A stretch of DNA of 64,000 nucleotides from Struthio camelus (Eukaryota; Chordata; Aves; Struthioniformes; Struthionidae): contig NC_090968.1 in the NCBI RefSeq assembly GCF_040807025.1, positions 930,001 through 994,000 on the forward strand, written 5' to 3'. The number at the start of each line of letters is the position of its first letter. The stretch's first letter is position 1. The notes below the pieces were generated by a model. It did no database searches. It saw only the letters and a program-made list of their open reading frames with translations, and was not told where the DNA came from. Position numbers and translations under genes: made by a program. Shown in pieces: positions 1-56,448 of this stretch.

Positions 1-3000
1 AGGCGGAGGGGCGTTGGAGTGTCTTTTGGGGAGGGAGAGGAGCCTCGGAGTGTGTTTTGTGGAGGGCGAGGAGCCTCCGAGTGTGCTTTGGAGAGGCGTA
101 GGGGCCGACAAGTGTGTTTTGTGGAGGCGGAGGGGCCTTGGAGTGTGTTTTGGGAGGGCTGAGGAGCTTCTGAGTGTGTTTTGGGGAGGCCATGGGGCGT
201 CGGAGTGGGTTTTGTGGAGCCTGGGGAGCTTTGGTGTGTGTTATGTTTTGGCCGAGGGGTCTCGGAGTGTGTTTTGTGGAGGCCGAGGGGTCTCGGAGTG
301 TGTTTTGTGGAGGGAGAGGCCCCTTGAAGTGGCTTTTGTGGAGTGTGAGGTGCCTCGGAGTGTGTTTTGGGGAGGCCGAGGGTCCTCAAAGTGTGTTTTG
401 TGGAGTGTGAGGTGCCTGGGAGTGGCTATTGGGGAGGCTGAGGGTCCTCGGAGTGGCTTTTGGGGAGGCCGGGGATCCTCCGAGTGTGTTTTGGGGAGGG
501 CGAGGGGCCTTGGAGTGGCTATTGGGGAGGGGTGGGGTCCTCGGAGCGGCTTTGGAGGATGCCGAGTAGCCTCCGAGTGTGTTTTGGAGAGGCGGAGGGT
601 CCACCGAGTGGCTTTTGGGGATGTTGCGGTGCCTCAGAGTGGCTTTTGTGGAGGCCTTGAGGCCTCGGAGTGTGTTTTGTGGAGGGCGAGGAGCCTCGGA
701 GTGCGTTTTGGGGAGGCCGGGGATCCTCAGAGTGTGTTTTGGGGAGGCCGGGGAGCGTCACCGAGTGTCTTTTGTGGAGTGTGAGGTGCCTCGGAGTGTG
801 TTTTGTGGAGGGCGAGGTGCCTCGGAGTGGCTTTTGTGGAGAGAGAGGAGCCTCGGAGTGTGTTTTTGGGGGGCCAAGGATCCTCAGAGAGTGTTTTGGG
901 GAGGCGGAGGGGCGTCGGAGTGGCTTTTGGGGATGCCGAGTAGCCTCCGAGTGTGTTTTGGAGAGACGGAGGGTCCACCGAGTGGCTTTTGTGGAGTCGG
1001 AGGTGGCTCGGAGTGTGTTTTGTGGAGGGCGAGGATCCTCGGAGTGTGTTTTGGGGAGGCCGAGGGGTGTTGGAGTGTCTTTTGGGGAGGGAGAGGAGCC
1101 TCGGAGTGTGTTTTGTGGAGGGCGAGGAGCCTCCGAGTGTGCTTTGGAGAGGCGTAGGGGCCGACAAGTGTGTTTTGCGGAGGCGGAGGGGCCTTGGAGT
1201 GTGTTTTGGGAGGGCTGAGGAGCTTCTGAGTGTGTTTTGGGGAGGCCATGGGGCGTCGGAGTGGGTTTTGTGGAGCCTGGGGAGCCTTGGTGTGTGTTTT
1301 GGGGAGGCCTCGGGGTCCCGGCGTGCGTTTTGGTGATGGTGAGCTTCCTAGAAGTGTATTGGAGGGAGGCCGAGGAGCCTCGGAGTGGCTTTGTTTTGGC
1401 CGAGGGGTCTCGGAGTGTGTTTTGTGGAGTGTGAAGAGCCTGGGAGTGTGTTTTGTGGAGTGTGAGGAGCCTGGGAGTGTGCTTTGGGTAGGCCAAGGGG
1501 CGTTGGAGTGGCTTTGTGGAGGCCGAGGGGTCTCGGAGTGTGTTTTGAGGATGCTGAGGATCCTCCGAGTGTGTTCTGGGGAGGTCGAGGGGTGTCGGCG
1601 TGGCTTTGGGGAGGCCGAGGGGCGTCGGAGTGGCTTTGGGGGAGGCCGAGCAGACTGGGAGTGTGTTTTGGGTAGGCGTTGGGGCCTTGGAGTGGCTTTT
1701 GTTGAGGAAGAGGAGCCTCGGAGTGTGTTTTGGGGAGGCCTCAGGGCCTCGGAGTGTGTTTTGGGGAGGCCTCAGGGCCTTGGAGTGGCTTTTGGGGATT
1801 TTGTGTGGCCTCAGAGAGTTTTTTGGGGAGGCCGAGGGTTTTGGGGTGTTTTTTGTGGAGGGCGAGGGGCCACGGAGTGTTTTGTGGAGGCGGAGGGGCC
1901 TTGGAGTGTGTTTTGGGAGGGCTGAGGAGCTTCTGAGTGTGTTTTGGGGAGGCCATGGGGCGTCGGAGTGGGTTTTGTGGAGCCTGGGGAGCCTCGGAGT
2001 GTGTTTTGGGGAGGGCGAGGGGTCTTGGAGTGTGTTTTGTGGAGGGAGAGGCCGCTTGAAGTGGCTTTTGTGGAGTGTGAGGTGCCTCGGAGTGTGTTCT
2101 GGGGATGCCGAGGGTCCTCAAAGTGTGTTTTGTGGAGTGTGATGTGCCTCGAAGTGTGTTTTGTGGAGGCCTCGTGGCCTTGGAGTGGCTTTTGGGGATG
2201 TTGCGTGGCCTCAGAGAGTTTTTTGGGGAGGCCGAGGGTGTTGGGGTGTGTTTTGTGGAGGGCGAGGGGCCACGGAGTGTGTTTTGGGGAGGCGGAGGGG
2301 CGTTGGAGTGTCTTTTGGGGAGGGCGAGGAGCCTCGGAGTGTGTTTTGTGGAGGGCGAGGAGCCTCCGAGTGTGCTTTGGAGAGGCGTAGGGGCCGACAA
2401 GTGTGTTTTGTGGAGGCGGAGGGGCCTTGGAGTGTGTTTTGGGAGGGCTGAGGAGCTTCTGAGTGTGTTTTGGGGAGGCCATGGGGCGTCGGAGTGGGTT
2501 TTGTGGAGCCTGGGGAGCCTTGGTGTGTGTTTTGGGGAGGCCTCGGGGTCCCGGCGTGCGTTTTGGTGATGGTGAGGTTCCTAGAAGTGTATTGGAGGGA
2601 GGCCGAGGAGCCTCGGAGTGGCTTTGTTTTGGCCGAGGGGTCTCGGAGTGTGTTTTGTGGAGTGTGAAGAGCCTGGGAGTGTGTTTTGTGGAGTGTGAGG
2701 AGCCTGGGAGTGTGCTTTGGGTAGGCCAAGGGGCGTTGGAGTGGTTTTGTGGAGGCCGAGGGGTCTCGGAGTGTGTTTTGGGGAGGCCGAGGATCCTCCG
2801 AGTGTGTTTTGGGGAGGCCGAGTGGCGTCGGAATGGCTTTTTGGGAGGCCTGAGGGCCTTGGAGTGTGTTTTGAGGATGCTGAGGATCCTCTGAGTGTGT
2901 TCTGGGGAGGTCGAGGGGTGTCGGCGTGGCTTTGGGGAGGCCGAGGGGCGTCGGAGTGGCTTTGGGGGAGGCCGAGCAGACTGGGAGTGTGTTTTGGGGA

Positions 3001-6000
3001 GGCCTCGGGGCCTTGGAGTGGCTTTTGTTGAGGAAGAGGAGCCTCGGAGTGTGTTTTGGGGAGGCCTCAGGGCCTTGGCGTGGCTATTGGGGAGGGGTCG
3101 GGGCCTTGGCGTGGCTTTTGGGGAGGCGTGGGGTCCTCGGAGCAGCTTTGGAGGATGCCGAGTAGCCTCCGAGTGTGTTTTGGAGAGGCGGAGGGTCCAC
3201 CGAGTGGCTTTTGGGGATGTTGCGGTGCCTCAGAGTGGCTTTTGTGGAGGCCTTGAGGCCTCGGAGTGTGTTTTGTGGAGGGCGAGGAGCCTCGGAGTGG
3301 CTTTTGTGGAGGCCTTGAGGCCTCGGAGTGTGTTTTGGGGAGGCCGAGGGGACTCCGAGTGTGTTTTGGGGAGGCCGAGGGTCCACCAAGTGTCTTTTGT
3401 GGAGCCTGGGGAGCGTCGGAGTGTGTTTTGTGGAGGCCTCGGGGCCTTGGAGTGGCTTTTGGGGATGTTGCGTGGCCTCAGATAGTTTTTGGGGAGGCCG
3501 AGGGTGTTGGGGTGTGTTTTGTGGAGGCCGAGGGGCGTTGGAGTGGCTTTTGGGGAGGGAGAGGAGCCTCGGAGTGTCTTTTGGGGAGGGCGAGGAGCCT
3601 CGGAGTGTGTTTTGTGGAGGGCGAGGAGCCTCCGAGTGTGCTTTGGAGAGGCGTAGGGGCCGACAAGTGTGTTTTGTGGAGGCGTAGGGGCCTTGGAGTG
3701 TGTTTTGGGAGGGCTGAGGAGCTTCTGAGTGTGTTTTGGGGAGGCCATGGGGCGTCGGAGTGGGTTTTGTGGAGCCTGGGGAGCCTTGGTTTGTGTTTTG
3801 GGGAGGCCTCGGGGTCCCGGCGTGCGTTTTGGTGATGGTGAGGTTCCTAGAAGTGTATTGGAGGGAGGCCGAGGAGCCTCGGAGTGGCTTTGTTTTGGCC
3901 GAGGGGTCTCGGAGTGTGTTTTGTGGAGTGTGAAGAGCCTGGGAGTGTGTTTTGTGGAGTGTGAGGAGCCTGGGAGTGTGCTTTGGGTAGGCCAAGGGGC
4001 GTTGGAGTGGCTTTGTGGAGGCCGAGGGGTCTCGGAGTGTGTTTTGGGGAGGCCGAGGATCCTCCGAGTGTGTTTTGGGGAGGCCGAGTGGCGTCGGAAT
4101 GGCTTTTTGGGAGGCCTGAGGGCCTTGGAGTGTGTTTTGAGGATGCTGAGGATCCTCCGAGTGTGTTCTGGGGAGGTCGAGGGGTGTCGGCGTGGCTTTG
4201 GGGAGGCCGAGGGGCGTCGGAGTGGCTTTGGGGGAGGCCGAGCAGACTGGGAGTGTGTTTTGGGGAGGCCTCGGGGCCTTGGAGTGGCTTTTGTTGAGGA
4301 AGAGGAGCCTCGGAGTGTGTTTTGGGGAGGCCTCAGGGCCTTGGCGTGGCTATTGGGGAGGGGTCGGGGCCTTGGCGTGGCTTTTGGGGAGGCGTGGGGT
4401 CCTCGGAGCAGCTTTGGAGGATGCCGAGTAGCCTCCGAGTGTGTTTTGGAGAGGCGGAGGGTCCACCGAGTGGCTTTTGGGGATGTTGCGGTGCCTCAGA
4501 GTGGCTTTTGTGGAGGCCTTGAGGCCTCGGAGTGTGTTTTGTGGAGGGCGAGGAGCCTCGGAGTGGCTTTTGTGGAGGCCTTGAGGCCTCGGAGTGTGTT
4601 TTGGGGAGGCCGAGGGGACTCCGAGTGTGTTTTGGGGAGGCCGAGGGTCCACCAAGTGTCTTTTGTGGAGCCTGGGGAGCGTCGGAGTGTGTTTTGTGGA
4701 GGCCTCGGGGCCTTGGAGTGGCTTTTGGGGATGTTGCGTGGCCTCAGATAGTTTTTGGGGAGGCCGAGGGTGTTGGGGTGTGTTTTGTGGAGGCCGAGGG
4801 GCGTTGGAGTGGCTTTTGGGGAGGGAGAGGAGCCTCGGAGTGTCTTTTGGGGAGGGCGAGGAGCCTCGGAGTGTGTTTTGTGGAGGGCGAGGAGCCTCCG
4901 AGTGTGCTTTGGAGAGGCGTAGGGGCCGACAAGTGTGTTTTGTGGAGGCGTAGGGGCCTTGGAGTGTGTTTTGGGAGGGCTGAGGAGCTTCTGAGTGTGT
5001 TTTGGGGAGGCCATGGGGCGTCGGAGTGGGTTTTGTGGAGCCTGGGGAGCCTTGGTTTGTGTTTTGGGGAGGCCTCGGGGTCCCGGCGTGCGTTTTGGTG
5101 ATGGTGAGGTTCCTAGAAGTGTATTGGAGGGAGGCCGAGGAGCCTCGGAGTGGCTTTGTTTTGGCCGAGGGGTCTCGGAGTGTGTTTTGTGGAGTGTGAA
5201 GAGCCTGGGAGTGTGTTTTGTGGAGTGTGAGGAGCCTGGGAGTGTGCTTTGGGTAGGCCAAGGGGCGTTGGAGTGGCTTTGTGGAGGCCGAGGGGTCTCG
5301 GAGTGTGTTTTGGGGAGGCCGAGGATCCTCCGAGTGTGTTTTGGGGAGGCCGAGTGGCGTCGGAATGGCTTTTTGGGAGGCCTGAGGGCCTTGGAGTGTG
5401 TTTTGAGGATGCTGAGGATCCTCCGAGTGTGTTCTGGGGAGGTCGAGGGGTGTCGGCGTGGCTTTGGGGAGGCCGAGGGGCGTCGGAGTGGCTTTGGGGG
5501 AGGCCGAGCAGACTGGGAGTGTGTTTTGGGGAGGCCTCGGGGCCTTGGAGTGGCTTTTGTTGAGGAAGAGGAGCCTCGGAGTGTGTTTTGGGGAGGCCTC
5601 AGGGCCTCGGAGTGTGTTTTGGGGAGGCCTCAGGGCCTTGGCGTGGCTATTGGGGAGGGGTCGGGGCCTTGGAGTGGCTTTTGGGGAGGCGTGGGGTCCT
5701 CGGAGCAGCTTTGGAGGATGCCGAGTAGCCTCCGAGTGTGTTTTGGAGAGGCGGAGGGTCCACCGAGTGGCTTTTGGGGATGTTGCGGTGCCTCAGAGTG
5801 GCTTTTGTGGAGGCCTTGAGGCCTCGGAGTGTGTTTTGTGGAGGGCGAGGAGCCTCGGAGTGGCTTTTGTGGAGGCCGAGGGGCCACCGAGTGTCTTTTG
5901 TGGAGTGTGAGGTGCCTCGGAGTGTGTTTTGGGGCGGCGGAGGGGCCTTGGAGTGGCTTTTGGGGATGTTGTGTGGCCTCAGAGAGTTTTTTGGGGAGGC

Positions 6001-6847
6001 CGAGGGTGTTGGGATGTGTTTTGTGGAGGGCGACGGGCCTCCGAGTGTGCTTTGGAGAGGCGTAGGGGCCGACAAGTGTGTTTTGTGGAGGCGGAGGGGC
6101 CTTGGAGTGTGTTTTGGGAGGGCTGAGGAGCTTCTGAGTGTGTTTTGGGGAGGCCATGGGGCGTCGGAGTGGGTTTTGTGGAGCCTGGGGAGCCTTGGTG
6201 TGTGTTTTGGGGAGGCCTCGGGGTCCCGGCGTGCGTTTTGGTGATGGTGAGGTTCCTAGAAGTGTATTGGAGGGAGGCCGAGGAGCCTCGGAGTGGCTTT
6301 GTTTTGGCCGAGGGGTCTCGGAGTGTGTTTTGTGGAGTGTGAAGAGCCTGGGAGTGTGTTTTGTGGAGTGTGAGGAGCCTGGGAGTGTGCTTTGGGTAGG
6401 CCAAGGGGCGTTGGAGTGGCTTTGTGGAGGCCGAGGGGTCTCGGAGTGTGTTTTGGGGAGGCCGAGGATCCTCCGAGTGTGTTTTGGGGAGGCCGAGGGG
6501 CCACCGAGTGTCTTTTGTGGAGTGTGAGGTGCCTCGGAGTGTGTTTTGTGGAGGCCTCGGGGCCTTGGAGTGGCTTTTGGGGATGTTGCGTGGCCTCGGA
6601 GAGTTTTTTGGGGAGGCCGAGGGTGTTGGGGTGTGTTTTGTGGAGGGCGAGGGGCCACGGAGTGTGTTTTGGGGAGGCGGAGGGGCGTTGGAGTGTCTTT
6701 TGGGGAGGGCGAGGAGCCTCGGAGTGTGTTTTGTGGAGGGCGAGGAGCCTCCGAGTGTGCTTTGGAGAGGCGTAGGGGCCGACAAGTGTGTTTTGTGGAG
6801 GCGGAGGGGCCTTGGAGTGTGTTTTGGGAGGGCTGAGGAGCTTCTGA
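1..6847 (+). repeat. Left part of the array: irregular higher-order blocks
   Basis: The marker unit that opens each block (it contains GGAGGCCATGGGGCG) starts at 174, 1230, 1937, 2463, 3729, 4995 and 6138. The spacings are 1056, 707, 526, 1266, 1266, 1143 and then 710. The two 1266-bp blocks at 2463 and 3729 are nearly identical. The stretch 1230-2462 closely resembles 29101-30426: both contain an extra marker unit 526 bp before the next full block, and both share the unusual units with GGGGATTTTGTGTGG. The beginning (1-1229) contains unit types otherwise typical of the 1765-bp block class, such as the GAGAGAGAGGAG-containing unit near 840. It therefore seems to be a rearranged or cut-off copy whose left part is outside the window. 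Confidence 0.85.
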
Positions 6848-9800
6848 GTGTGTTTTGGGGAGGCCATGGGGCGTCGGAGTGGGTTTTGTGGAGCCTGGGG
6901 AGCCTTGGTGTGTGTTTTGGGGAGGCCTCGGGGTCCCGGCGTGCGTTTTGGTGATGGTGAGGTTCCTAGAAGTGTATTGGAGGGAGGCCGAGGAGCCTCG
7001 GAGTGGCTTTGTTTTGGCCGAGGGGTCTCGGAGTGTGTTTTGTGGAGTGTGAAGAGCCTGGGAGTGTGTTTTGTGGAGTGTGAGGAGCCTGGGAGTGTGC
7101 TTTGGGTAGGCCAAGGGGCGTTGGAGTGGCTTTGTGGAGGCCGAGGGGTCTCGGAGTGTGTTTTGGGGAGGCCGAGGATCCTCCGAGTGTGTTTTGGGGA
7201 GGCCGAGTGGCGTCGGAATGGCTTTTTGGGAGGCCTGAGGGCCTTGGAGTGTGTTTTGAGGATGCTGAGGATCCTCCGAGTGTGTTCTGGGGAGGTCGAG
7301 GGGTGTCGGTGTGGCTTTGGGGAGGCCGAGGGGCGTCGGAGTGGCTTTGGGGGAGGCCGAGCAGACTGGGAGTGTGTTTTGGGGAGGCCTCGGGGCCTTG
7401 GAGTGGCTTTTGTTGAGGAAGAGGAGCCTCGGAGTGTGTTTTGGGGAGGCCTCAGGGCCTCGGAGTGTGTTTTGGGGAGGCCTCAGGGCCTTGGCGTGGC
7501 TATTGGGGAGGGGTCGGGGCCTTGGAGTGGCTTTTGGGGAGGCGTGGGGTCCTCGGAGCAGCTTTGGAGGATGCCGAGTAGCCTCCGAGTGTGTTTTGGA
7601 GAGGCGGAGGGTCCACCGAGTGGCTTTTGGGGATGTTGCGGTGCCTCAGAGTGGCTTTTGTGGAGGCCTTGAGGCCTCGGAGTGTGTTTTGTGGAGGGCG
7701 AGGAGCCTCGGAGTGGCTTTTGTGGAGGCCTTGAGGCCTCGGAGTGTGTTTTGGGGAGGCCGAGGGGACTCCGAGTGTGTTTTGTGGAGGCCTCGGGGCC
7801 TTGGAGTGGCTTTTGGGGATGTTGCGTGGCCTCAGAGAGTTTTTTGGGGAGGCCGAGGGTGTTGGGGTGTGTTTTGTGGAGGGCGAGGGGCCACGGAGTG
7901 TGTTTTGGGGAGGCGGAGGGGCGTTGGAGTGTGTTTTGGGGAGGGCGAGGAGCCTCGGAGTGTGTTTTGTGGAGGGCGAGGAGCCTTGGAGTGTGTTTTG
8001 GGAGGGCTGAGGAGCTTCTGAGTGTGTTTTGGGGAGGCCATGGGGCGTCGGAGTGGGTTTTGTGGAGCCTGGGGAGCCTTGGTGTGTGTTTTGGGGAGGG
8101 CGAGGGGTCTCGGAGTGTGTTTTGTTTTGGCCGAGGGGTCTCGGAGTGTGTTTTGTGGAGGGAGAGGCCCCTTGAAGTGGCTTTTGTGGAGTGTGAGGTG
8201 CCTCGGAGTGTGTTTTGGGGATGCCGAGGGTCCTCAAAGTGTGTTTTGTGGAGTGTGAGGTGCCTGGGAGTGGCTATTGGGGAGGCTGAGGGTCCTCGGA
8301 GTGGCTTTTGGGGAGGCCGGGGATCCTCCGAGTGTGTTTTGGGGAGGCCGGGGAGCGTCAGAGTGGCTTTTGTGGAGTGTGAGGTGCCTCGGAGTGGCTT
8401 TTGGGGAGGTGTCAGGGCCACCAAGTGTGTTCTGGGGAGGGCGAGGGGCCTCGGAGTGGCTATTGGGGAGGCGTTGGGGCCTTGGAGTGGCTTTTGTTGA
8501 GGAAGAGGAGCCTCGGAGTGTGTTTTGGGGAGGCCTCAGGGCCTCGGAGTGTGTTTTGGGGAGGCCTCAGGGCCTTGGCGTGGCTATTGGGGAGGGGTCG
8601 GGGCCTTGGCGTGGCTTTTGGGGAGGCGTGGGGTCCTCGGAGCGGCTTTGGAGGATGCCGAGTAGCCTCCGAGTGTGTTTTGGAGAGGCGGAGGGTCCAC
8701 CGAGTGGCTTTTGGGGATGTTGCGGTGCCTCAGAGTGGCTTTTGTGGAGGCCTTGAGGCCTCGGAGTGTGTTTTGTGGAGGGCGAGGAGCCTCGGAGTGC
8801 GTTTTGGGGAGGCCGGGGATCCTCAGAGTGTGTTTTGGGGAGGCCGGGGAGCGTCACCGAGTGTCTTTTGTGGAGTGTGAGGTGCCTCGGAGTGTGTTTT
8901 GTGGAGGGCGAGGTGCCTCGGAGTGGCTTTTGTGGAGAGAGAGGAGCCTCGGAGTGTGTTTTTGGGGGGCCAAGGATCCTCAGAGAGTGTTTTGGGGAGG
9001 CGGAGGGGCGTCGGAGTGGCTTTTGGGGATGCCGAGTAGCCTCCGAGTGTGTTTTGGAGAGGCGGAGGGTCCACCGAGTGGCTTTTGTGGAGTCGGAGGT
9101 GGCTCGGAGTGTCTTTTGTGAAGGGCGAGGATCCTCGGAGTGTGTTTTGGGGAGGCCGAGGGGACTCCGAGTGTGTTTTGGGGAGGCCGAGGGGCCACCG
9201 AGTGTCTTTTGCGGAGTGTGAGGTGCCTCGGAGTGTGTTTTGTGGAGGCCTCGGGGCCTTGGAGTGGCTTTTGGGGATGTTGCGTGGCCTCAGAGTTTTT
9301 TGGGGAGGCCGAGGGTGTTGGGGTGTGTTTTGTGGAGGGCGAGGGGCCACGGAGTGTGTTTTGGGGAGGCGGAGGGGCATTGGAGTGTCTTTTGGGGAGG
9401 GAGAGGAGCCTCGGAGTGGCTTTTGTGGAGGCCTTGAGGCCTCGGAATGTGTTTTGGGGAGGCCGAGGATCCTCCGAGTGTGTTTTGGGGAGGCCGAGTG
9501 GCGTCGGAATGGCTTTTTGGGAGGCCTGAGGGCCTTGGAGTGTGTTTTGAGGATGCTGAGGATCCTCCGAGTGTGTTCTGGGGAGGTCGAGGGGTGTCGG
9601 CGTGGCTTTGGGGAGGCCGAGGGGCGTCGGAGTGGCTTTGGGGGAGGCCGAGCAGACTGGGAGTGTGTTTTGGGGAGGCCTCGGGGCCTTGGAGTGGCTT
9701 TTGTTGAGGAAGAGGAGCCTCGGAGTGTGTTTTGGGGAGGCCTCAGGGCCTTGGAGTGTGTTTTGGGAGGGCTGAGGAGCTTCTGAGTGTGTTTTGGGGA

Positions 9801-12725
9801 GGCCATGGGGCGTCGGAGTGGGTTTTGTGGAGCCTGGGGAGCCTTGGTGTGTGTTTTGGGGAGGCCTCGGGGTCCCGGCGTGCGTTTTGGTGATGGTGAG
9901 GTTCCTAGAAGTGTATTGGAGGGAGGCCGAGGAGCCTCGGAGTGGCTTTGTTTTGGCCGAGGGGTCTCGGAGTGTGTTTTGTGGAGTGTGAAGAGCCTGG
10001 GAGTGTGTTTTGTGGAGTGTGAGGAGCCTGGGAGTGTGCTTTGGGTAGGCCAAGGGGCGTTGGAGTGGCTTTGTGGAGGCCGAGGGGTCTCGGAGTGTGT
10101 TTTGGGGAGGCCGAGGATCCTCCGAGTGTGTTTTGGGGAGGCCGAGTGGCGTCGGAATGGCTTTTTGGGAGGCCTGAGGGCCTTGGAGTGTGTTTTGAGG
10201 ATGCTGAGGATCCTCCGAGTGTGTTCTGGGGAGGTCGAGGGGTGTCGGTGTGGCTTTGGGGAGGCCGAGGGGCGTCGGAGTGGCTTTGGGGGAGGCCGAG
10301 CAGACTGGGAGTGTGTTTTGGGGAGGCCTCGGGGCCTTGGAGTGGCTTTTGTTGAGGAAGAGGAGCCTCGGAGTGTGTTTTGGGGAGGCCTCAGGGCCTC
10401 GGAGTGTGTTTTGGGGAGGCCTCAGGGCCTTGGCGTGGCTATTGGGGAGGGGTCGGGGCCTTGGAGTGGCTTTTGGGGAGGCGTGGGGTCCTCGGAGCAG
10501 CTTTGGAGGATGCCGAGTAGCCTCCGAGTGTGTTTTGGAGAGGCGGAGGGTCCACCGAGTGGCTTTTGGGGATGTTGCGGTGCCTCAGAGTGGCTTTTGT
10601 GGAGGCCTTGAGGCCTCGGAGTGTGTTTTGTGGAGGGCGAGGAGCCTCGGAGTGGCTTTTGTGGAGGCCTTGAGGCCTCGGAGTGTGTTTTGGGGAGGCC
10701 GAGGGGACTCCGAGTGTGTTTTGTGGAGGCCTCGGGGCCTTGGAGTGGCTTTTGGGGATGTTGCGTGGCCTCAGAGAGTTTTTTGGGGAGGCCGAGGGTG
10801 TTGGGGTGTGTTTTGTGGAGGGCGAGGGGCCACGGAGTGTGTTTTGGGGAGGCGGAGGGGCGTTGGAGTGTCTTTTGGGGAGGGCGAGGAGCCTCGGAGT
10901 GTGTTTTGTGGAGGGCGAGGAGCCTTGGAGTGTGTTTTGGGAGGGCTGAGGAGCTTCTGAGTGTGTTTTGGGGAGGCCATGGGGCGTCGGAGTGGGTTTT
11001 GTGGAGCCTGGGGAGCCTTGGTGTGTGTTTTGGGGAGGGCGAGGGGTCTCGGAGTGTGTTTTGTTTTGGCCGAGGGGTCTCGGAGTGTGTTTTGTGGAGG
11101 GAGAGGCCCCTTGAAGTGGCTTTTGTGGAGTGTGAGGTGCCTCGGAGTGTGTTTTGGGGATGCCGAGGGTCCTCAAAGTGTGTTTTGTGGAGTGTGAGGT
11201 GCCTGGGAGTGGCTATTGGGGAGGCTGAGGGTCCTCGGAGTGGCTTTTGGGGAGGCCGGGGATCCTCCGAGTGTGTTTTGGGGAGGCCGGGGAGCGTCAG
11301 AGTGGCTTTTGTGGAGTGTGAGGTGCCTCGGAGTGGCTTTTGGGGAGGTGTCAGGGCCACCAAGTGTGTTCTGGGGAGGGCGAGGGGCCTCGGAGTGGCT
11401 ATTGGGGAGGCGTTGGGGCCTTGGAGTGGCTTTTGTTGAGGAAGAGGAGCCTCGGAGTGTGTTTTGGGGAGGCCTCAGGGCCTCGGAGTGTGTTTTGGGG
11501 AGGCCTCAGGGCCTTGGCGTGGCTATTGGGGAGGGGTCGGGGCCTTGGCGTGGCTTTTGGGGAGGCGTGGGGTCCTCGGAGCGGCTTTGGAGGATGCCGA
11601 GTAGCCTCCGAGTGTGTTTTGGAGAGGCGGAGGGTCCACCGAGTGGCTTTTGGGGATGTTGCGGTGCCTCAGAGTGGCTTTTGTGGAGGCCTTGAGGCCT
11701 CGGAGTGTGTTTTGTGGAGGGCGAGGAGCCTCGGAGTGCGTTTTGGGGAGGCCGGGGATCCTCAGAGTGTGTTTTGGGGAGGCCGGGGAGCGTCACCGAG
11801 TGTCTTTTGTGGAGTGTGAGGTGCCTCGGAGTGTGTTTTGTGGAGGGCGAGGTGCCTCGGAGTGGCTTTTGTGGAGAGAGAGGAGCCTCGGAGTGTGTTT
11901 TTGGGGGGCCAAGGATCCTCAGAGAGTGTTTTGGGGAGGCGGAGGGGCGTCGGAGTGGCTTTTGGGGATGCCGAGTAGCCTCCGAGTGTGTTTTGGAGAG
12001 GCGGAGGGTCCACCGAGTGGCTTTTGTGGAGTCGGAGGTGGCTCGGAGTGTCTTTTGTGAAGGGCGAGGATCCTCGGAGTGTGTTTTGGGGAGGCCGAGG
12101 GGACTCCGAGTGTGTTTTGGGGAGGCCGAGGGGCCACCGAGTGTCTTTTGCGGAGTGTGAGGTGCCTCGGAGTGTGTTTTGTGGAGGCCTCGGGGCCTTG
12201 GAGTGGCTTTTGGGGATGTTGCGTGGCCTCAGAGTTTTTTGGGGAGGCCGAGGGTGTTGGGGTGTGTTTTGTGGAGGGCGAGGGGCCACGGAGTGTGTTT
12301 TGGGGAGGCGGAGGGGCATTGGAGTGTCTTTTGGGGAGGGAGAGGAGCCTCGGAGTGGCTTTTGTGGAGGCCTTGAGGCCTCGGAATGTGTTTTGGGGAG
12401 GCCGAGGATCCTCCGAGTGTGTTTTGGGGAGGCCGAGTGGCGTCGGAATGGCTTTTTGGGAGGCCTGAGGGCCTTGGAGTGTGTTTTGAGGATGCTGAGG
12501 ATCCTCCGAGTGTGTTCTGGGGAGGTCGAGGGGTGTCGGCGTGGCTTTGGGGAGGCCGAGGGGCGTCGGAGTGGCTTTGGGGGAGGCCGAGCAGACTGGG
12601 AGTGTGTTTTGGGGAGGCCTCGGGGCCTTGGAGTGGCTTTTGTTGAGGAAGAGGAGCCTCGGAGTGTGTTTTGGGGAGGCCTCAGGGCCTTGGAGTGTGT
12701 TTTGGGAGGGCTGAGGAGCTTCTGA
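6848..12725 (+). repeat. Tandem duplication of a 2939-bp double block (6848-9786 and 9787-12725)
   Basis: Marker units start at 6848, 8022, 9787, 10961 and 12726, giving spacings of 1174, 1765, 1174 and 1765. The pair (1174 + 1765 = 2939 bp) is thus present twice in direct succession. The two copies are almost identical through their whole length, with only scattered single-base differences. One difference is at the junction: the block starting at 9787 reads GGGGCGTCGG, whereas the one at 12726 reads GGGGCGCCGG. This is the clearest recent local duplication in the array. Confidence 0.88.
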
Positions 12726-43600: not shown

Positions 43601-45728
43601 TGGGGAGGCCTCGGGGCCTTGGAGTGGCTTTTGTTGAGGAAGAGGAGCCTCGGAGTGTGTTTTGGGGAGGCCGAGGGGACTCCGAGTGTGTTTTGGGGAG
43701 GCTGAGGGGCCACCGAGTGTCTTTTGTGGAGTGTGAGGTGCCTCGGAGTGTGTTTTGGGGCGGCGGAGGGGCCTTGGAGTGGCTTTTGGGGATGTTGCGT
43801 GGCCTCAGAGAGTTTTTTGGGGAGGCCGAGGGTGTTGGGGTGTGTTTTGGGGAGGCGGAGAGGCGTTGGAGTGTCTTTTGGGGAGGGAGAGGAGCCTCGG
43901 AGTGTGTTTTGTGGAGGGCGAGGAGCCTTGGAGTGTGTTTTGGGAGGGCTGAGGAGCTTCTGAGTGTGTTTTGGGGAGGCCATGGGGCGTCGGAGTGGGT
44001 TTTGTGGAGCCTGGGGAGCCTTGGTGTGTGTTTTGGGGAGGGCGAGGGGTCTCGGAGTGTGTTTTGTTTTGGCCGAGGGGTCTCGGAGTGTGTTTTGTGG
44101 AGGGAGAGGCCCCTTGAAGTGGCTTTTGTGGAGTGTGAGGTGCCTCGGAGTGTGTTTTGGGGATGCCGAGGGTCCTCAAAGTGTGTTTTGTGGAGTGTGA
44201 GGTGCCTGGGAGTGGCTATTGGGGAGGCTGAGGGTCCTCGGAGTGGCTTTTGGGGAGGCCGGGGATCCTCCGAGTGTGTTTTGGGGAGGCCAGGGAGCGT
44301 CAGAGTGGCTTTTGTGGAGTGTGAGGTGCCTCGGAGTGGCTTTTGGGGAGGTGTCAGGGCCACCAAGTGTGTTCTGGGGAGGGCGAGGGGCCTCGGAGTG
44401 GCTATTGGGGAGGCGTTTGGGCCTTGGAGTGGCTTTTGTTGAGGAAGAGGAGCCTCGGAGTGTGTTTTGGGGAGGCCTCAGGGCCTCGGAGTGTGTTTTG
44501 GGGAGGCCTCAGGGCCTTGGCGTGGCTATTGGGGAGGGGTCGGGGCCTTGGCGTGGCTTTTGGGGAGGCGTGGGGTCCTCGGAGCGGCTTTGGAGGATGC
44601 CGAGTAGCCTCCGAGTGTGTTTTGGAGAGGCGGAGGGTCCACCGAGTGGCTTTTGGGGATGTTGCGGTGCCTCAGAGTGGCTTTTGTGGAGGCCTTGAGG
44701 CCTCGGAGTGTGTTTTGTGGAGGGCGAGGAGCCTCGGAGTGCGTTTTGGGGAGGCCGGGGATCCTCAGAGTGTGTTTTGGGGAGGCCGGGGAGCGTCACC
44801 GAGTGTCTTTTGTGGAGTGTGAGGTGCCTCGGAGTGTGTTTTGTGGAGGGCGAGGTGCCTCGGAGTGGCTTTTGTGGAGAGAGAGGAGCCTCGGAGTGTG
44901 TTTTTGGGGGGCCAAGGATCCTCAGAGAGTGTTTTGGGGAGGCGGAGGGGCGTCGGAGTGGCTTTTGGGGATGCCGAGTAGCCTCCGAGTGTGTTTTGGA
45001 GAGGCGGAGGGTCCACCGAGTGGCTTTTGTGGAGTCGGAGGTGGCTCGGAGTGTCTTTTGTGAAGGGCGAGGATCCTCGGAGTGTGTTTTGGGGAGGCCG
45101 AGGGGACTCCGAGTGTGTTTTGGGGAGGCCGAGGGGCCACCGAGTGTCTTTTGCGGAGTGTGAGGTGCCTCGGAGTGTGTTTTGTGGAGGCCTCGGGGCC
45201 TTGGAGTGGCTTTTGGGGATGTTGCGTGGCCTCAGAGTTTTTTGGGGAGGCCGAGGGTGTTGGGGTGTGTTTTGTGGAGGGCGAGGGGCCACGGAGTGTG
45301 TTTTGGGGAGGCGGAGGGGCATTGGAGTGTCTTTTGGGGAGGGAGAGGAGCCTCGGAGTGGCTTTTGTGGAGGCCTTGAGGCCTCGGAATGTGTTTTGGG
45401 GAGGCCGAGGATCCTCCGAGTGTGTTTTGGGGAGGCCGAGTGGCGTCGGAATGGCTTTTTGGGAGGCCTGAGGGCCTTGGAGTGTGTTTTGAGGATGCTG
45501 AGGATCCTCCGAGTGTGTTCTGGGGAGGTCGAGGGGTGTCGGCGTGGCTTTGGGGAGGCCGAGGGGCGTCGGAGTGGCTTTGGGGGAGGCCGAGCAGACT
45601 GGGAGTGTGTTTTGGGGAGGCCTCGGGGCCTTGGAGTGGCTTTTGTTGAGGAAGAGGAGCCTCGGAGTGTGTTTTGGGGAGGCCTCAGGGCCTTGGAGTG
45701 TGTTTTGGGAGGGCTGAGGAGCTTCTGA
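37659..45728 (+). repeat. Super-block 3 of the satellite (8,070 bp)
   Basis: Begins with the GGGGCGCCGG marker at 37659. Block starts are 37659, 38925, 40068, 41242, 41952 and 43964, with lengths 1266, 1143, 1174, 710, 2012 and 1765. The 2012-bp block starts like a 1765-bp class block. Near 43660 it changes to the series of units otherwise found around 28030 and 33640 (GGGGAGGCTGAGGGGCC, then GGGGCGGCGGAGGGGCC), so it appears to be a recombinant of two block classes. Confidence 0.85.
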
Positions 45729-48700
45729 GTGTGTTTTGGGGAGGCCATGGGGCGCCGGAGTGGGTTTTGTGGAGCCTGGGGAGCCTTGGTGTGTGTTTTG
45801 GGGAGGCCTCGGGGTCCCGGCGTGCGTTTTGGTGATGGTGAGGTTCCTAGAAGTGTATTGGAGGGAGGCCGAGGAGCCTCGGAGTGGCTTTGTTTTGGCC
45901 GAGGGGTCTCGGAGTGTGTTTTGTGGAGTGTGAAGAGCCTGGGAGTGTGTTTTGTGGAGTGTGAGGAGCCTGGGAGTGTGCTTTGGGTAGGCCAAGGGGC
46001 GTTGGAGTGGCTTTGTGGAGGCCGAGGGGTCTCGGAGTGTGTTTTGGGGAGGCCGAGGATCCTCCGAGTGTGTTTTGGGGAGGCCGAGTGGCGTCGGAAT
46101 GGCTTTTTGGGAGGCCTGAGGGCCTTGGAGTGTGTTTTGAGGATGCTGAGGATCCTCCGAGTGTGTTCTGGGGAGGTCGAGGGGTGTCGGCGTGGCTTTG
46201 GGGAGGCCGAGGGGCGTCGGAGTGGCTTTGGGGGAGGCCGAGCAGACTGGGAGTGTGTTTTGGGGAGGCCTCGGGGCCTTGGAGTGGCTTTTGTTGAGGA
46301 AGAGGAGCCTCGGAGTGTGTTTTGGGGAGGCCTCAGGGCCTTGGCGTGGCTATTGGGGAGGGGTCGGGGCCTTGGCGTGGCTTTTGGGGAGGCGTGGGGT
46401 CCTCGGAGCAGCTTTGGAGGATGCCGAGTAGCCTCCGAGTGTGTTTTGGAGAGGCGGAGGGTCCACCGAGTGGCTTTTGGGGATGTTGCGGTGCCTCAGA
46501 GTGGCTTTTGTGGAGGCCTTGAGGCCTCGGAGTGTGTTTTGTGGAGGGCGAGGAGCCTCGGAGTGGCTTTTGTGGAGGCCTTGAGGCCTCGGAGTGTGTT
46601 TTGGGGAGGCCGAGGGGACTCCGAGTGTGTTTTGGGGAGGCCGAGGGTCCACCAAGTGTCTTTTGTGGAGCCTGGGGAGCGTCGGAGTGTGTTTTGTGGA
46701 GGCCTCGGGGCCTTGGAGTGGCTTTTGGGGATGTTGCGTGGCCTCAGATAGTTTTTGGGGAGGCCGAGGGTGTTGGGGTGTGTTTTGTGGAGGCCGAGGG
46801 GCGTTGGAGTGGCTTTTGGGGAGGGAGAGGAGCCTCGGAGTGTCTTTTGGGGAGGGCGAGGAGCCTCGGAGTGTGTTTTGTGGAGGGCGAGGAGCCTCCG
46901 AGTGTGCTTTGGAGAGGCGTAGGGGCCGACAAGTGTGTTTTGTGGAGGCGTAGGGGCCTTGGAGTGTGTTTTGGGAGGGCTGAGGAGCTTCTGAGTGTGT
47001 TTTGGGGAGGCCATGGGGCGTCGGAGTGGGTTTTGTGGAGCCTGGGGAGCCTTGGTTTGTGTTTTGGGGAGGCCTCGGGGTCCCGGCGTGCGTTTTGGTG
47101 ATGGTGAGGTTCCTAGAAGTGTATTGGAGGGAGGCCGAGGAGCCTCGGAGTGGCTTTGTTTTGGCCGAGGGGTCTCGGAGTGTGTTTTGTGGAGTGTGAA
47201 GAGCCTGGGAGTGTGTTTTGTGGAGTGTGAGGAGCCTGGGAGTGTGCTTTGGGTAGGCCAAGGGGCGTTGGAGTGGCTTTGTGGAGGCCGAGGGGTCTCG
47301 GAGTGTGTTTTGGGGAGGCCGAGGATCCTCCGAGTGTGTTTTGGGGAGGCCGAGTGGCGTCGGAATGGCTTTTTGGGAGGCCTGAGGGCCTTGGAGTGTG
47401 TTTTGAGGATGCTGAGGATCCTCCGAGTGTGTTCTGGGGAGGTCGAGGGGTGTCGGCGTGGCTTTGGGGAGGCCGAGGGGCGTCGGAGTGGCTTTGGGGG
47501 AGGCCGAGCAGACTGGGAGTGTGTTTTGGGGAGGCCTCGGGGCCTTGGAGTGGCTTTTGTTGAGGAAGAGGAGCCTCGGAGTGTGTTTTGGGGAGGCCTC
47601 AGGGCCTCGGAGTGTGTTTTGGGGAGGCCTCAGGGCCTTGGTGTGGCTATTGGGGAGGGGTCGGGGCCTTGGAGTGGCTTTTGGGGAGGCGTGGGGTCCT
47701 CGGAGCAGCTTTGGAGGATGCCGAGTAGCCTCCGAGTGTGTTTTGGAGAGGCGGAGGGTCCACCGAGTGGCTTTTGGGGATGTTGCGGTGCCTCAGAGTG
47801 GCTTTTGTGGAGGCCTTGAGGCCTCGGAGTGTGTTTTGTGGAGGGCGAGGAGCCTCGGAGTGGCTTTTGTGGAGGCCGAGGGGCCACCGAGTGTCTTTTG
47901 TGGAGTGTGAGGTGCCTCGGAGTGTGTTTTGGGGCGGCGGAGGGGCCTTGGAGTGGCTTTTGGGGATGTTGTGTGGCCTCAGAGAGTTTTTTGGGGAGGC
48001 CGAGGGTGTTGGGATGTGTTTTGTGGAGGGCGACGGGCCTCCGAGTGTGCTTTGGAGAGGCGTAGGGGCCGACAAGTGTGTTTTGTGGAGGCGGAGGGGC
48101 CTTGGAGTGTGTTTTGGGAGGGCTGAGGAGCTTCTGAGTGTGTTTTGGGGAGGCCATGGGGCGTCGGAGTGGGTTTTGTGGAGCCTGGGGAGCCTTGGTG
48201 TGTGTTTTGGGGAGGCCTCGGGGTCCCGGAGTGCGTTTTGGTGATGGTGAGGTTCCTAGAAGTGTATTGGAGGGAGGCCGAGGAGCCTCGGAGTGGCTTT
48301 GTTTTGGCCGAGGGGTCTCGGAGTGTGTTTTGTGGAGTGTGAAGAGCCTGGGAGTGTGTTTTGTGGAGTGTGAGGAGCCTGGGAGTGTGCTTTGGGTAGG
48401 CCAAGGGGCGTTGGAGTGGCTTTGTGGAGGCCGAGGGGTCTCGGAGTGTGTTTTGGGGAGGCCGAGGATCCTCCGAGTGTGTTTTGGGGAGGCCGAGTGG
48501 CGTCGGAATGGCTTTTTGGGAGGCCTGAGGGCCTTGGAGTGTGTTTTGAGGATGCTGAGGATCCTCCAAGTGTGTTCTGGGGAGGCCGAGGGGTGTCGGC
48601 ATGGCTTTGGGGAGGCCGAGGGGCGTCGGAGTGGCTTTAGTTGAGGAAGAGGAGCCTTGGAGTGTGTTTTGGGGAGGCCTCAGGGCCTTGGCGTGGCTAT

Positions 48701-51700
48701 TGGGGAGGGGTCGGGGCCTTGGCGTGGCTTTTGGGGAGGCGTGGGGTCCTCGGAGCAGCTTTGGAGGATGCCGAGTAGCCTCCGAGTGTGTTTTGGAGAG
48801 GCGGAGGGTCCACCGAGTGGCTTTTGGGGATGTTGCGGTGCCTCAGAGTGGCTTTTGTGGAGGCCTTGAGGCCTCGGAGTGTGTTTTGTGGAGGGCGAGG
48901 AGCCTCGGAGTGGCTTTTGTGGAGGCCTTGAGGCCTCGGAGTGTGTTTTGGGGAGGCCGAGGGGACTCCGAGTGTGTTTTGGGGAGGCTGAGGGGCCACC
49001 GAGTGTCTTTTGTGGAGTGTGAGGTGCCTCGGAGTGTGTTTTGGGGCGGCGGAGGGGCCTTGGAGTGGCTTTTGGGGATGTTGCGTGGCCTCAGAGAGTT
49101 TTTTGGGGAGGCCGAGGGTGTTGGGGTGTGTTTTGGGGAGGCGGAGAGGCGTTGGAGTGTCTTTTGGGGAGGGAGAGGAGCCTCGGAGTGTGTTTTGTGG
49201 AGGGCGAGGAGCCTCGGAGTGTGCTTTGGAGAGGCGTAGGGGCCGACAAGTGTGTTTTGTGGAGGCGGAGGGGCCTTGGAGTGTGTTTTGGGAGGGCTGA
49301 GGAGCTTCTGAGTGTGTTTTGGGGAGGCCATGGGGCGTCGGAGTGGGTTTTGTGGAGCCTGGGGAGCCTTGGTGTGTGTTTTGGGGAGGCCTCGGGGTCC
49401 CGGCGTGCGTTTTGGTGATGGTGAGGTTCCTAGAAGTGTATTGGAGGGAGGCCGAGGAGCCTCGGAGTGGCTTTGTTTTGGCCGAGGGGTCTCGGAGTGT
49501 GTTTTGTGGAGTGTGAAGAGCCTGGGAGTGTGTTTTGTGGAGTGTGAGGAGCCTGGGAGTGTGCTTTGGGTAGGCCAAGGGGCGTTGGAGTGGCTTTGTG
49601 GAGGCCGAGGGGTCTCGGAGTGTGTTTTGGGGAGGCCGAGGATCCTCCGAGTGTGTTTTGGGGAGGCCGAGGGGCCACCGAGTGTCTTTTGTGGAGTGTG
49701 AGGTGCCTCGGAGTGTGTTTTGTGGAGGCCTCGGGGCCTTGGAGTGGCTTTTGGGGATGTTGCGTGGCCTCGGAGAGTTTTTTGGGGAGGCCGAGGGTGT
49801 TGGGGTGTGTTTTGTGGAGGCCGAGGGGCCACGGAGTGTGTTTTGGGGAGGCGGAGGGGCGTTGGAGTGTCTTTTGGGGAGGGCGAGGAGCCTCGGAGTG
49901 TGTTTTGTGGAGGGCGAGGAGCCTCCGAGTGTGCTTTGGAGAGGCGTAGGGGCCGACAAGTGTGTTTTGTGGAGGCGGAGGGGCCTTGGAGTGTGTTTTG
50001 GGAGGGCTGAGGAGCTTCTGAGTGTGTTTTGGGGAGGCCATGGGGCGTCGGAGTGGGTTTTGTGGAGCCTGGGGAGCCTTGGTGTGTGTTTTGGGGAGGG
50101 CGAGGGGTCTCGGAGTGTGTTTTGTTTTGGCCGAGGGGTCTCGGAGTGTGTTTTGTGGAGGGAGAGGCCCCTTGAAGTGGCTTTTGTGGAGTGTGAGGTG
50201 CCTCGGAGTGTGTTTTGGGGATGCCGAGGGTCCTCAAAGTGTGTTTTGTGGAGTGTGAGGTGCCTGGGAGTGGCTATTGGGGAGGCTGAGGGTCCTCGGA
50301 GTGGCTTTTGGGGAGGCCGGGGATCCTCCGAGTGTGTTTTGGGGAGGCCGGGGAGCGTCAGAGTGGCTTTTGTGGAGTGTGAGGTGCCTCGGAGTGGCTT
50401 TTGGGGAGGTGTCAGGGCCACCAAGTGTGTTCTGGGGAGGGCGAGGGGCCTTGGAGTGGCTATTGGGGAGGCGTTGGGGCCTTGGAGTGGCTTTTGTTGA
50501 GGAAGAGGAGCCTCGGAGTGTGTTTTGGGGAGGCCTCAGGGCCTCGGAGTGTGTTTTGGGGAGGCCTCAGGGCCTTGGCGTGGCTATTGGGGAGGGGTCG
50601 GGGCCTTGGAGTGGCTTTTGGGGAGGCGTGGGGTCCTCGGAGCGGCTTTGGAGGATGCCGAGTAGCCTCCGAGTGTGTTTTGGAGAGGCGGAGGGTCCAC
50701 CGAGTGGCTTTTGGGGATGTTGCGGTGCCTCAGAGTGGCTTTTGTGGAGGCCTTGAGGCCTCGGAGTGTGTTTTGTGGAGGGCGAGGAGCCTCGGAGTGC
50801 GTTTTGGGGAGGCCGGGGATCCTCAGAGTGTGTTTTGGGGAGGCCGGGGAGCGTCACCGAGTGTCTTTTGTGGAGTGTGAGGTGCCTCGGAGTGTGTTTT
50901 GTGGAGGGCGAGGTGCCTCGGAGTGGCTTTTGTGGAGAGAGAGGAGCCTCGGAGTGTGTTTTTGGGGGGCCAAGGATCCTCAGAGAGTGTTTTGGGGAGG
51001 CGGAGGGGCGTCGGAGTGGCTTTTGGGGATGCCGAGTAGCCTCCGAGTGTGTTTTGGAGAGGCGGAGGGTCCACCGAGTGGCTTTTGTGGAGTCGGAGGT
51101 GGCTCGGAGTGTCTTTTGTGAAGGGCGAGGATCCTCGGAGTGTGTTTTGGGGAGGCCGAGGGGACTCCGAGTGTGTTTTGGGGAGGCCGAGGGGCCACCG
51201 AGTGTCTTTTGCGGAGTGTGAGGTGCCTCGGAGTGTGTTTTGTGGAGGCCTCGGGGCCTTGGAGTGGCTTTTGGGGATGTTGCGTGGCCTCAGAGTTTTT
51301 TGGGGAGGCCGAGGGTGTTGGGGTGTGTTTTGTGGAGGGCGAGGGGCCACGGAGTGTGTTTTGGGGAGGCGGAGGGGCATTGGAGTGTCTTTTGGGGAGG
51401 GAGAGGAGCCTCGGAGTGGCTTTTGTGGAGGCCTTGAGGCCTCGGAATGTGTTTTGGGGAGGCCGAGGATCCTCCGAGTGTGTTTTGGGGAGGCCGAGTG
51501 GCGTCGGAATGGCTTTTTGGGAGGCCTGAGGGCCTTGGAGTGTGTTTTGAGGATGCTGAGGATCCTCCGAGTGTGTTCTGGGGAGGTCGAGGGGTGTCGG
51601 CGTGGCTTTGGGGAGGCCGAGGGGCATCGGAGTGGCTTTGGGGGAGGCCGAGCAGACTGGGAGTGTGTTTTGGGGAGGCCTCGGGGCCTTGGAGTGGCTT

Positions 51701-53729
51701 TTGTTGAGGAAGAGGAGCCTCGGAGTGTGTTTTGGGGAGGCCGAGGGGACTCCGAGTGTGTTTTGGGGAGGCTGAGGGGCCACCGAGTGTCTTTTGTGGA
51801 GTGTGAGGTGCCTCGGAGTGTGTTTTGGGGCGGCGGAGGGGCCTTGGAGTGGCTTTTGGGGATGTTGCGTGGCCTCAGAGAGTTTTTTGGGGAGGCCGAG
51901 GGTGTTGGGGTGTGTTTTGGGGAGGCGGAGAGGCGTTGGAGTGTCTTTTGGGGAGGGAGAGGAGCCTCGGAGTGTGTTTTGTGGAGGGCGAGGAGCCTCG
52001 GAGTGTGCTTTGGAGAGGCGTAGGGGCCGACAAGTGTGTTTTGTGGAGGCGGAGGGGCCTTGGAGTGTGTTTTGGGAGGGCTGAGGAGCTTCTGAGTGTG
52101 TTTTGGGGAGGCCATGGGGCGTCGGAGTGGGTTTTGTGGAGCCTGGGGAGCCTTGGTGTGTGTTTTGTTTTGGCCGAGGGGTCTCGGAGTGTGTTTTGTT
52201 TTGGCCGAGGGGTCTCGGAGTGTGTTTTGTGGAGGGAGAGGCCCCTTGAAGTGGCTTTTGTGGAGTGTGAGGTGCCTCGGAGTGTGTTTTGGGGATGCCG
52301 AGGGTCCTCAAAGTGTGTTTTGTGGAGTGTGAGGTGCCTGGGAGTGGCTATTGGGGAGGCTGAGGGTCCTCGGAGTGGCTTTTGGGGAGGCCGGGGATCC
52401 TCCGAGTGTGTTTTGGGGAGGCCAGGGAGCGTCAGAGTGGCTTTTGTGGAGTGTGAGGTGCCTTGGAGTGGCTTTTGGGGAGGCGTCAGGGCCTTGGAGT
52501 GGCCTTTGGGGAGGCGTGGGGTCCTCGGAGCGGCTTTGGAGGATGCCGAGTAGCCTCCGAGTGTGTTTTGGAGAGGCGGAGGGTCCACCGAGTGGCTTTT
52601 GGGGATGTTGCGGTGCCTCAGAGTGGCTTTTGTGGAGGCCTTGAGGCCTCGGAGTGTGTTTTGTGGAGGGCGAGGAGCCTCGGAGTGCGTTTTGGGGAGG
52701 CCGGGGATCCTCAGAGTGTGTTTTGGGGAGGCCGGGGAGCGTCACCGAGTGTCTTTTGTGGAGTGTGAGGTGCCTCGGAGTGTCTTTTGTGGAGGGCGAG
52801 GTGCCTCGGAGTGGCTTTTGTGGAGAGAGAGGAGCCTCGGAGTGTGTTTTTGGGGGGCCAAGGATCCTCAGAGAGTGTTTTGGGGAGGCGGAGGGGCGTC
52901 GGAGTGGCTTTTGGGGATGCCGAGTAGCCTCCGAGTGTGTTTTGGAGAGGCGGAGGGTCCACCGAGTGGCTTTTGTGGAGTCGGAGGTGGCTCGGAGTGT
53001 CTTTTGTGAAGGGCGAGGATCCTCGGAGTGTGTTTTGGGGAGGCCGAGGGGACTCCGAGTGTGTTTTGGGGAGGCCGAGGGGCCACCGAGTGTCTTTTGC
53101 GGAGTGTGAGGTGCCTCGGAGTGTGTTTTGTGGAGGCCTCGGGGCCTTGGAGTGGCTTTTGGGGATGTTGCGTGGCCTCAGAGTTTTTTGGGGAGGCTGA
53201 GGGTGTTGGGGTGTGTTTTGTGGAGGGCGAGGGGCCACGGAGTGTGTTTTGTGGAGGCGGAGGGGCGTTGGAGTGTCTTTTGGGGAGGGAGAGGAGCCTC
53301 GGAGTGTGTTTTGTGGAGGGCGAGGAGCCTCCGAGTGTGCTTTGGAGAGGCGTAGGGGCCGACAAGTGTTTTTTGGGGAGGCGGAGCGGCCTTGGAGTGG
53401 GTTTTGTGGAGTGTGAGGTGCCTCGGAGTGTGTTTTGGGGAGGGCGAGGGGTCTCGGAGTGTGTTTTGTGGAGGGAGAGGCCCCTTGAAGTGGCATTTGT
53501 GGAGGCCTCTGTGCCTCGGAGTGTGTTATGGGGAGGCCTCGGGGCCTCTGAGTATTTTTTGGGGAGATTGAGGTGACTGGTAGCAGCTTTTGTGGAGGTC
53601 TCGAAGCCTCTGAATGTCTTTTGGGAAGGCTGAAGTGCCTCCGAGTGTTTTTCGGAGGAGGCTGAGGGGCCTCCGAGTATAGCTTTTGTTGAGGCCGAGG
53701 GGTATTGTAGTGGCTTTTGGGGAGGCCGT
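45729..53729 (+). repeat. Super-block 4, cut off by the right end of the array
   Basis: Begins with the GGGGCGCCGG marker at 45729. Block starts are 45729, 46995, 48138, 49312, 50022 and 52096, with lengths 1266, 1143, 1174, 710 and 2074. The 2074-bp block has the same recombinant structure as the 2012-bp block of super-block 3, with the switch near 51735. The last block, from 52096, begins with a doubled TTTTGTTTTGGCC unit, is shortened around 52460-52520, and passes into the degraded array edge. Confidence 0.85.
53400..53729 (+). repeat. Diverged right edge of the satellite array
   Basis: The last ten or so units depart steadily from the consensus. Examples are GTGTTATGGGGAGG near 53521, ATTTTTTGGGGAG near 53553, TTTTGTGGAGGTCTCG near 53588, a 32-bp unit with TTTTTCGGAGGAGG near 53648 and a 33-bp unit with TATAGCTTTTGTTG near 53678. 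The final recognisable unit ends with TTTTGGGGAGGCCG at about 53729, after which the sequence is unrelated. Accumulated point changes and unit-length changes at an array end are expected where homogenising exchange no longer reaches. Confidence 0.85.
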
Positions 53730-56380: not shown

Positions 56381-56448
56381 TGCCGGGGCTGGGAAGCGCC
56401 GGCCTTTCGCGCCGGCGTATCCTCGTTCCCAGAGGATGCTCACGCCCC

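What the first reader, a model, noticed from the sequence alone, without database searches (positions are those of the whole stretch)
174..52100. Multi-level higher-order repeat structure
Forty-five copies of one marker unit (GGAGGCCATGGGGCG) divide the array into blocks. Recurrent lengths are 710, 1143, 1174, 1266 and 1765 bp. These repeat in a set order (1266, 1143, 1174, 710, then a 1174 + 1765 pair or a fused 2012- or 2074-bp block). Super-blocks start at 12726, 24808, 37659 and 45729, each marked by GGGGCGCCGG. This resembles the higher-order organisation of centromeric alpha satellite, but with a much shorter base unit.
Basis: seen in the sequence. Interest (0 to 1): 0.78.

Follow-up and report, generated by a model that had tools for sequence, protein, structure and literature searches.

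The report
Bird 31-bp satellite with nested repeats
The window holds at least 53.7 kb of a 31-base repeat, copied in nearly identical multi-unit blocks and super-blocks beside the PROM2 gene of a ratite-like bird; it is a well-resolved new example of a kind of DNA already known from chicken centromeres.

Summary
Bases 1-53735 are one tandem array: 1739 units of about 31 bp, 155 distinct. The marker occurs 43 times exactly plus twice with one mismatch, so 45. It cuts the array into 44 blocks; copies of a block type differ by 0.16% on average, while units inside two sampled blocks differ by about 8 of 31 bases. Block order is far from random. This is a genuine higher-order repeat (HOR).

Corrections: "1174" is two different blocks of equal length. 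The "fused" 2012 and 2074 blocks are variants of the 1765 block, not 1174+1765 fusions.

The neighbour is PROM2 of a palaeognath bird, a chromosome-22 gene in another bird study. So this is probably a microchromosome satellite. Chicken 41-bp CNM repeats form HORs of 26-98 units and emu satellites include a 31-bp unit: the kind is known. Alpha-satellite unit length, CENP-B boxes and telomeric repeats are missing. Centromere function is untested. All 1738 complete units are 28-33 bp, which suggests in-register unequal exchange.

The parts
1..53735 (+). 31-bp satellite array, G-rich strand on +, open at the left window edge
   Evidence: TRF period 31, 1738.2 copies over 1-53728; 1739 units, 155 distinct; GC skew 0.50-0.56 in the 2-kb windows up to 52000
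171..2459 (+). irregular left part: blocks of 1056, 707 and 526 bp
2460..12722 (+). blocks A A B D C1 E C1 E (A=1266, B=1143, D=710, C1=1174 first type, E=1765)
   Evidence: C1-E pair repeated with a shift of 2939 bp
12723..24804 (+). super-block A B 1176 A A B 1173 D C1 E, 12082 bp
24805..37655 (+). super-block A B C2 D 800 526 A B C2 D C1 E, 12851 bp (C2=1174 second type); inner repeat with a shift of 5619 bp
37656..45725 (+). super-block A B C2 D 2012 E, 8070 bp
45726..53735 (+). last super-block A B C2 D 2074 followed by an E-like terminal block
53487..53735 (+). decayed right edge: 8 single-copy units, 2 to 8 edits from any other distinct unit
53736..58700 (.). flank of lower GC without the 31-bp repeat; 7 of its longer ORFs match no Pfam family
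58725..60610 (.). C-rich low-complexity minisatellites (borders by eye)
60766..63999 (-). 3' exons of PROM2 (prominin-2)
   Evidence: Pfam PF05478 E=7.8e-36 for joined exon pieces; bird PROM2 homologues, 76% identity to kiwi; reading frames

Best explanation
This is a satellite DNA array on a palaeognath bird microchromosome (the homologue of chicken chromosome 22). About 31 bp is the base unit; 17 to 67 diverged units form each higher-order block; blocks are grouped into super-blocks of 8 to 13 kb. It arose and is kept uniform by repeated unequal homologous exchange (or another homology-dependent duplication) that pairs units in register, so it duplicates and deletes whole units, block pairs and super-blocks. 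It most likely serves as heterochromatin of the (peri)centromeric type, as CNM arrays do in chicken, and carries no coded product. Shown: the unit, the block hierarchy, the divergence contrast, unit lengths that stay in register, the gene neighbour. Inferred: the exchange mechanism, the microchromosome, heterochromatin, nearness to the centromere.
For: 1739 units, 155 distinct; blocks 0.156% diverged over 95 same-type pairs against mean edit distances of 8.3 and 7.8 of 31 between units within two sampled blocks, neighbours no closer than random; long exact repeats at shifts 1266, 2939, 5619, 8070, 12082 and 12851; every complete unit, 1738 of 1738, is 28-33 bp long, so junctions keep the register; non-random block order; edge decay at the right end. 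Bird microchromosome: PROM2; tree support 100/100 for a group of the window with kiwi, emu and two tinamous; among the 120 rows listed of 199 hits, the 13 bird rows on contigs over 4 Mb lie on contigs of 4.3-9.1 Mb; PROM2 among chr22-derived genes in crested ibis. Kind known in birds: CNM HORs, emu satDNA with 31 bp as shortest unit.
Against: No chromosome position, ChIP, methylation or FISH data. A PROM2 gene only 7 kb from the array is closer to a gene than I would expect for deep centromeric chromatin. No telomeric repeat or CENP-B box, and the CNM motif is nearly absent. In-register junctions do not separate unequal crossing-over from break-induced replication or gene conversion. The tree flags odd composition in the emu and Eudromia rows, so the place of the window inside the palaeognaths is weak.
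Confidence: 0.66

Rival explanations
1. The array is the functional centromere core: CENP-A sits on the 31-bp HORs as on human alpha satellite.
For: Young, homogeneous, multi-level HORs are typical of active centromere arrays (recalled for human); CNM HORs mark chicken acrocentric centromeres.
Against: In chicken CENP-A usually lies not on the CNM body but at or near its borders, in some chromosomes on TTAGGG or other simple repeats; TTAGGG is absent from this window; a gene lies 7 kb away.
Confidence: 0.18
2. A local interstitial macrosatellite beside PROM2, unrelated to the centromere, grown by chance unequal exchange.
For: GC-rich gene flank and other minisatellites at about 59.0-60.5 and 62.0-62.5 kb; border to DNA without the repeat at 53735.
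Against: At least 53.7 kb long and still open at the left edge; satellites of other birds map largely to microchromosomes and centromeric heterochromatin.
Confidence: 0.25
3. The block order is partly an assembly artefact (collapse, wrong order or false duplication).
For: Copies of a block type are 99.4-100% identical; no reads could be checked.
Against: Longest exact repeat is 2759 bp, short for accurate long reads (read length recalled); several copies carry their own differences, though some pairs are identical; long repeats occur at several unrelated shifts.
Confidence: 0.1
4. A selected protein-binding box in each unit (GAGTGnnTTTTG) holds the array together, as CENP-B boxes do. This can be true together with the best explanation.
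For: Mismatch to consensus over 81 unit types of 31 bp is 6% in columns 1-5 and 8-12 against 24% elsewhere; heterogeneity chi-square 343 on 30 df.
Against: The columns were chosen after seeing the data, unit types are related, and much variation sits in a few columns; no dyad is kept.
Confidence: 0.1

Closest known systems
Chicken CNM (41-bp) higher-order repeats, PMC9974502 (abstract and passages read)
   Same: Avian short-unit satellite; HORs of 26-98 units, here 17-67; microchromosomes among the carriers
   Different: 31 not 41 bp; the A3-5/T3-5 motif of the CNM family is nearly absent (12 places among 1739 units); here a further super-block level is resolved; centromere place unknown
Emu satDNA with 31-bp unit, DnoSat series, PMC11036779 (passages read)
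   Same: Palaeognath, shortest unit 31 bp; 23 of 24 families are GC-rich and the exception has the 5881-bp unit, so the 31-bp one is GC-rich
   Different: Sequence not in the text held, so homology was not tested; no HOR described in the passages read
Ruminant satellite I (cervid satellite I, bovine 1.715), PMC2760882 (passages read)
   Same: 31-bp subrepeats inside a larger unit of roughly 1 kb
   Different: Mammal; sequence homology not tested; same length may be convergence
Human alpha satellite HOR (recalled)
   Same: Diverged units inside nearly identical higher-order blocks
   Different: 171-bp unit and CENP-B box in alpha satellite; neither here
Chicken W sate-21, PMC9974502 (passages read)
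   Same: Short unit forming HORs in a bird
   Different: 21 bp with TTTTC-N5-GAAAA dyad, 0 hits here

Membership tests
Higher-order repeat satellite (general) | Diverged units within a block, near-identical block copies in tandem | tested here: met
   0.156% between blocks; mean 8.3 and 7.8 edits per 31 within two blocks
Higher-order repeat satellite (general) | Blocks recur in a set order | tested here: met
   Conditional entropy 0.76 bits against 1.72 +/- 0.10, 0 of 10,000 shuffles as low
Alpha satellite | About 171-bp unit (recalled) | tested here: not met
   1574 of 1739 units are 31 bp
Alpha satellite | CENP-B box in a subset of units (motif recalled) | tested here: not met
   0 matches on either strand of the window
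[quoted passage not shown]
   12 places in 53.7 kb, only 12 AAA on the + strand
CNM repeat family (Galliformes) | 41-bp unit in chicken | tested here: not met
   31 bp
CNM repeat family (Galliformes) | Centromeric place on acrocentric chromosomes | not testable with these tools
   Window position on the chromosome unknown; the genome search did not complete
CNM and sate-21 type satellites | Conserved dyad symmetry in the unit | tested here: not met
   The consensus can pair GAGGCC with GGCCTC, but pairing over 134 distinct 31-bp units (0.623) equals the shuffled value (0.627; 698 of 1000 shuffles as high)
Emu 31-bp satDNA | Sequence identity to the deposited unit | not testable with these tools
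   Letters are under GenBank OR813804-OR813827, not in the text held
Functional centromere | CENP-A occupancy | not testable with these tools
   Sequence only

The most novel reading that the evidence does not exclude
A ratite microchromosome centromere (or its immediate flank) built from a GC-rich 31-bp satellite with a unit-block-super-block hierarchy, evolved independently of the CNM family: short-unit HORs would then be a recurrent outcome at bird microchromosome centromeres rather than a peculiarity of one repeat family.
Probability: 0.25. Interest if true: 0.5.

Novelty: new member of a known kind. Interest (0 to 1): 0.33.

Why it matters
It gives a readable record of how a short-unit satellite grows by whole-unit duplication at several scales, and adds a palaeognath case (the oldest split among living birds, recalled) to the HORs described in chicken. 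If centromeric, it would allow a test of whether bird microchromosome centromeres repeatedly turn to short-unit HORs.

Tried and rejected
Dyad or hairpin unit: no more pairing than shuffled columns. CENP-B box, TTAGGG, CNM A/T motif, sate-21 motif: absent or negligible. G-quadruplex array: on the + strand 0 strict and 14 relaxed matches in 53.7 kb; on the - strand 0 relaxed, strict not run. Giant coding repeat: longest open frame 719 aa on the C-rich strand; the 31-bp period is not a multiple of three; taken as chance, without a shuffle control. Growth by local neighbour duplication: neighbours no closer than random units in the two blocks tested. Dimeric unit: no sign (that scan is ungapped, so identity fades with distance). 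Rfam on 52000-64000 only: nothing. Plasmid collection with one 1164-bp piece of the array: no match, as expected. Genes between array and PROM2: 7 ORFs given of 70 of 50 aa or more found in 53736-60700, no Pfam match. PDB search with a PROM2 piece: only two weak matches, E about 0.6.

Literature: 10 searches, of which I saw listings; none listed a paper that names this array., which asked for 31 bp in birds, returned 0 papers. Passages of six papers were read. Subscription papers, including the rhea satellite paper cited in PMC6435179, were not readable. This is not proof of absence.

Full report
WHAT IS THERE. Tandem Repeats Finder sees one array of period 31 over 1-53728. A wrap-around alignment to the consensus cuts 1-53735 into 1739 units: 1574 of 31 bp, 131 of 30, 33 others of 28, 29, 32 or 33, and one 15-bp piece at the left window edge. 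Only 155 unit sequences are distinct. The + strand is G-rich, skew 0.50-0.56 in every 2-kb window up to 52000, so no inverted segment shows at that scale. The array starts outside the window on the left. On the right it ends at 53735, after eight single-copy decayed units.

HIERARCHY. The marker occurs 43 times exactly and 45 times with up to one mismatch. The 44 blocks fall into A=1266 (9 copies), B=1143 (7), two kinds of 1174 (C1 four, C2 four), D=710 (6), E=1765 (5), 526 (2) and seven lengths seen once: 1056, 707, 1176, 1173, 800, 2012, 2074. Copies of one kind differ by 0 to 6 bases; pooled over 95 pairs the divergence is 0.156%, 175 of 112,493 compared bases. Within one A block and one E block the units differ by 8.3 and 7.8 edits on average, and neighbours are no more alike than random pairs (804 and 1663 of 2000 shuffles as low). 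This contrast, about 25-27% against 0.16%, is the signature of a higher-order repeat.

SUPER-BLOCKS. Four A blocks that follow E carry GGGGCGCCGG. The canonical order, as I read it, is A-B-C2-D-X-E, where X is C1, 2012 or 2074. The run A-B-C2-D occurs 4 times. The exceptions: A-A doublings (2 places), a C1-E doubling (shift 2939), an inner A-B-C2-D repeat after an 800-526 pair (shift 5619), and A-B followed once each by D, 1176 and 1173. 8070, 12082 and 12851 are shifts of long exact matches.

WHERE IT IS. The minus strand of 60766-63999 holds PROM2 exons: Pfam prominin E=7.8e-36, best homologue kiwi PROM2 at 76%. In a tree of 24 rows the window groups with kiwi, emu and two tinamous with 100/100 support. 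Inside that group the window sits with emu and tinamous at 95/92, but the emu and one tinamou row have odd composition and the emu branch is long, so I put little weight on it. No tool names the species. Kiwi, emu and the two sampled tinamous (66-76% identity) are too distant to be the source; rhea or ostrich are my guess. Among the 120 rows listed of 199, the 13 bird rows on contigs over 4 Mb lie on contigs of 4.3-9.1 Mb, and the crested ibis paper places PROM2 among genes in a stratum derived from chromosome 22 (PMC10891136, passages). So the array probably sits on a microchromosome, about 7 kb from the 3' end of PROM2.

HOW IT WORKS. All 1738 complete units are 28-33 bp, so no duplication or deletion junction broke the unit register. 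Random end joining would break it; exchange between aligned units keeps it. Long repeats at shifts from one block to 12.8 kb, and more, fit repeated unequal exchange between sister chromatids or homologues. With 1-2e-9 changes per site per year (recalled), 0.156% gives roughly 0.4-0.8 million years since the copies were last made alike. That is inference. I found no dyad, CENP-B, telomeric or quadruplex signal and no reason to think the array coding. Columns 1-5 and 8-12 of the unit are more conserved than the rest (6% against 24% mismatch over 81 unit types), which may be a binding box or history; the columns were chosen after looking.

WHAT IT RESEMBLES. In chicken, 41-bp CNM repeats form HORs of 26-98 units, 5-162 HOR units per cluster, at acrocentric centromeres, while CENP-A usually sits at or near the borders of the CNM arrays (PMC9974502, abstract and passages). 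A later chicken and mallard study also reports CNM-41 in chicken microchromosome centromeres and another repeat, APL-HaeIII, in mallard (PMC11745021, passages). The emu has 24 satDNA families with units from 31 to 5881 bp, 23 of them GC-rich (PMC11036779, passages). Cervid satellite I has 31-bp subrepeats in a unit of roughly 1 kb (PMC2760882, passages). So an HOR on a short unit is not new. Not shared with CNM: unit length, the A3-5/T3-5 motif (motif as given in PMC6435179, passages; counts), conserved dyad. The array works like those systems at the level of organisation; it is not shown to be a member of any named family.

LIMITS. The genome search did not answer in five tries, so the genome, other loci of the family and the left end of the array were not seen. 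Read support could not be checked. The longest exact repeat is 2759 bp, which accurate long reads should span. The confidences given to the rivals overlap: the binding box and a partial assembly fault could each be true beside the best explanation.

Noticed in passing
58725-60610: Long C-rich low-complexity minisatellites between the array flank and PROM2; 58001-62000 is 69-75% GC.
   Followed up: no
61979-62531: A minisatellite with about 12- and 21-bp periods (CCCCACCGCCGT type) lies between PROM2 exon pieces, so probably within an intron.
   Followed up: no
units across 1-53735: Columns 1-5 and 8-12 of the 31-bp unit (GAGTGnnTTTTG) vary about four times less than the rest, and columns 6-7 are mostly TG or GC.
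   Followed up: partly
60766-63999: PROM2 here is on a long branch (0.18) and 76% identical to kiwi, and the emu row is also long (0.2); PROM2 may be fast-evolving in palaeognaths or the gene models are imperfect.
   Followed up: partly
27925-30081: A 719-aa stop-free frame on the C-rich strand of the array, with others of 576-671 aa; probably an effect of a stop-poor repeat.
   Followed up: partly
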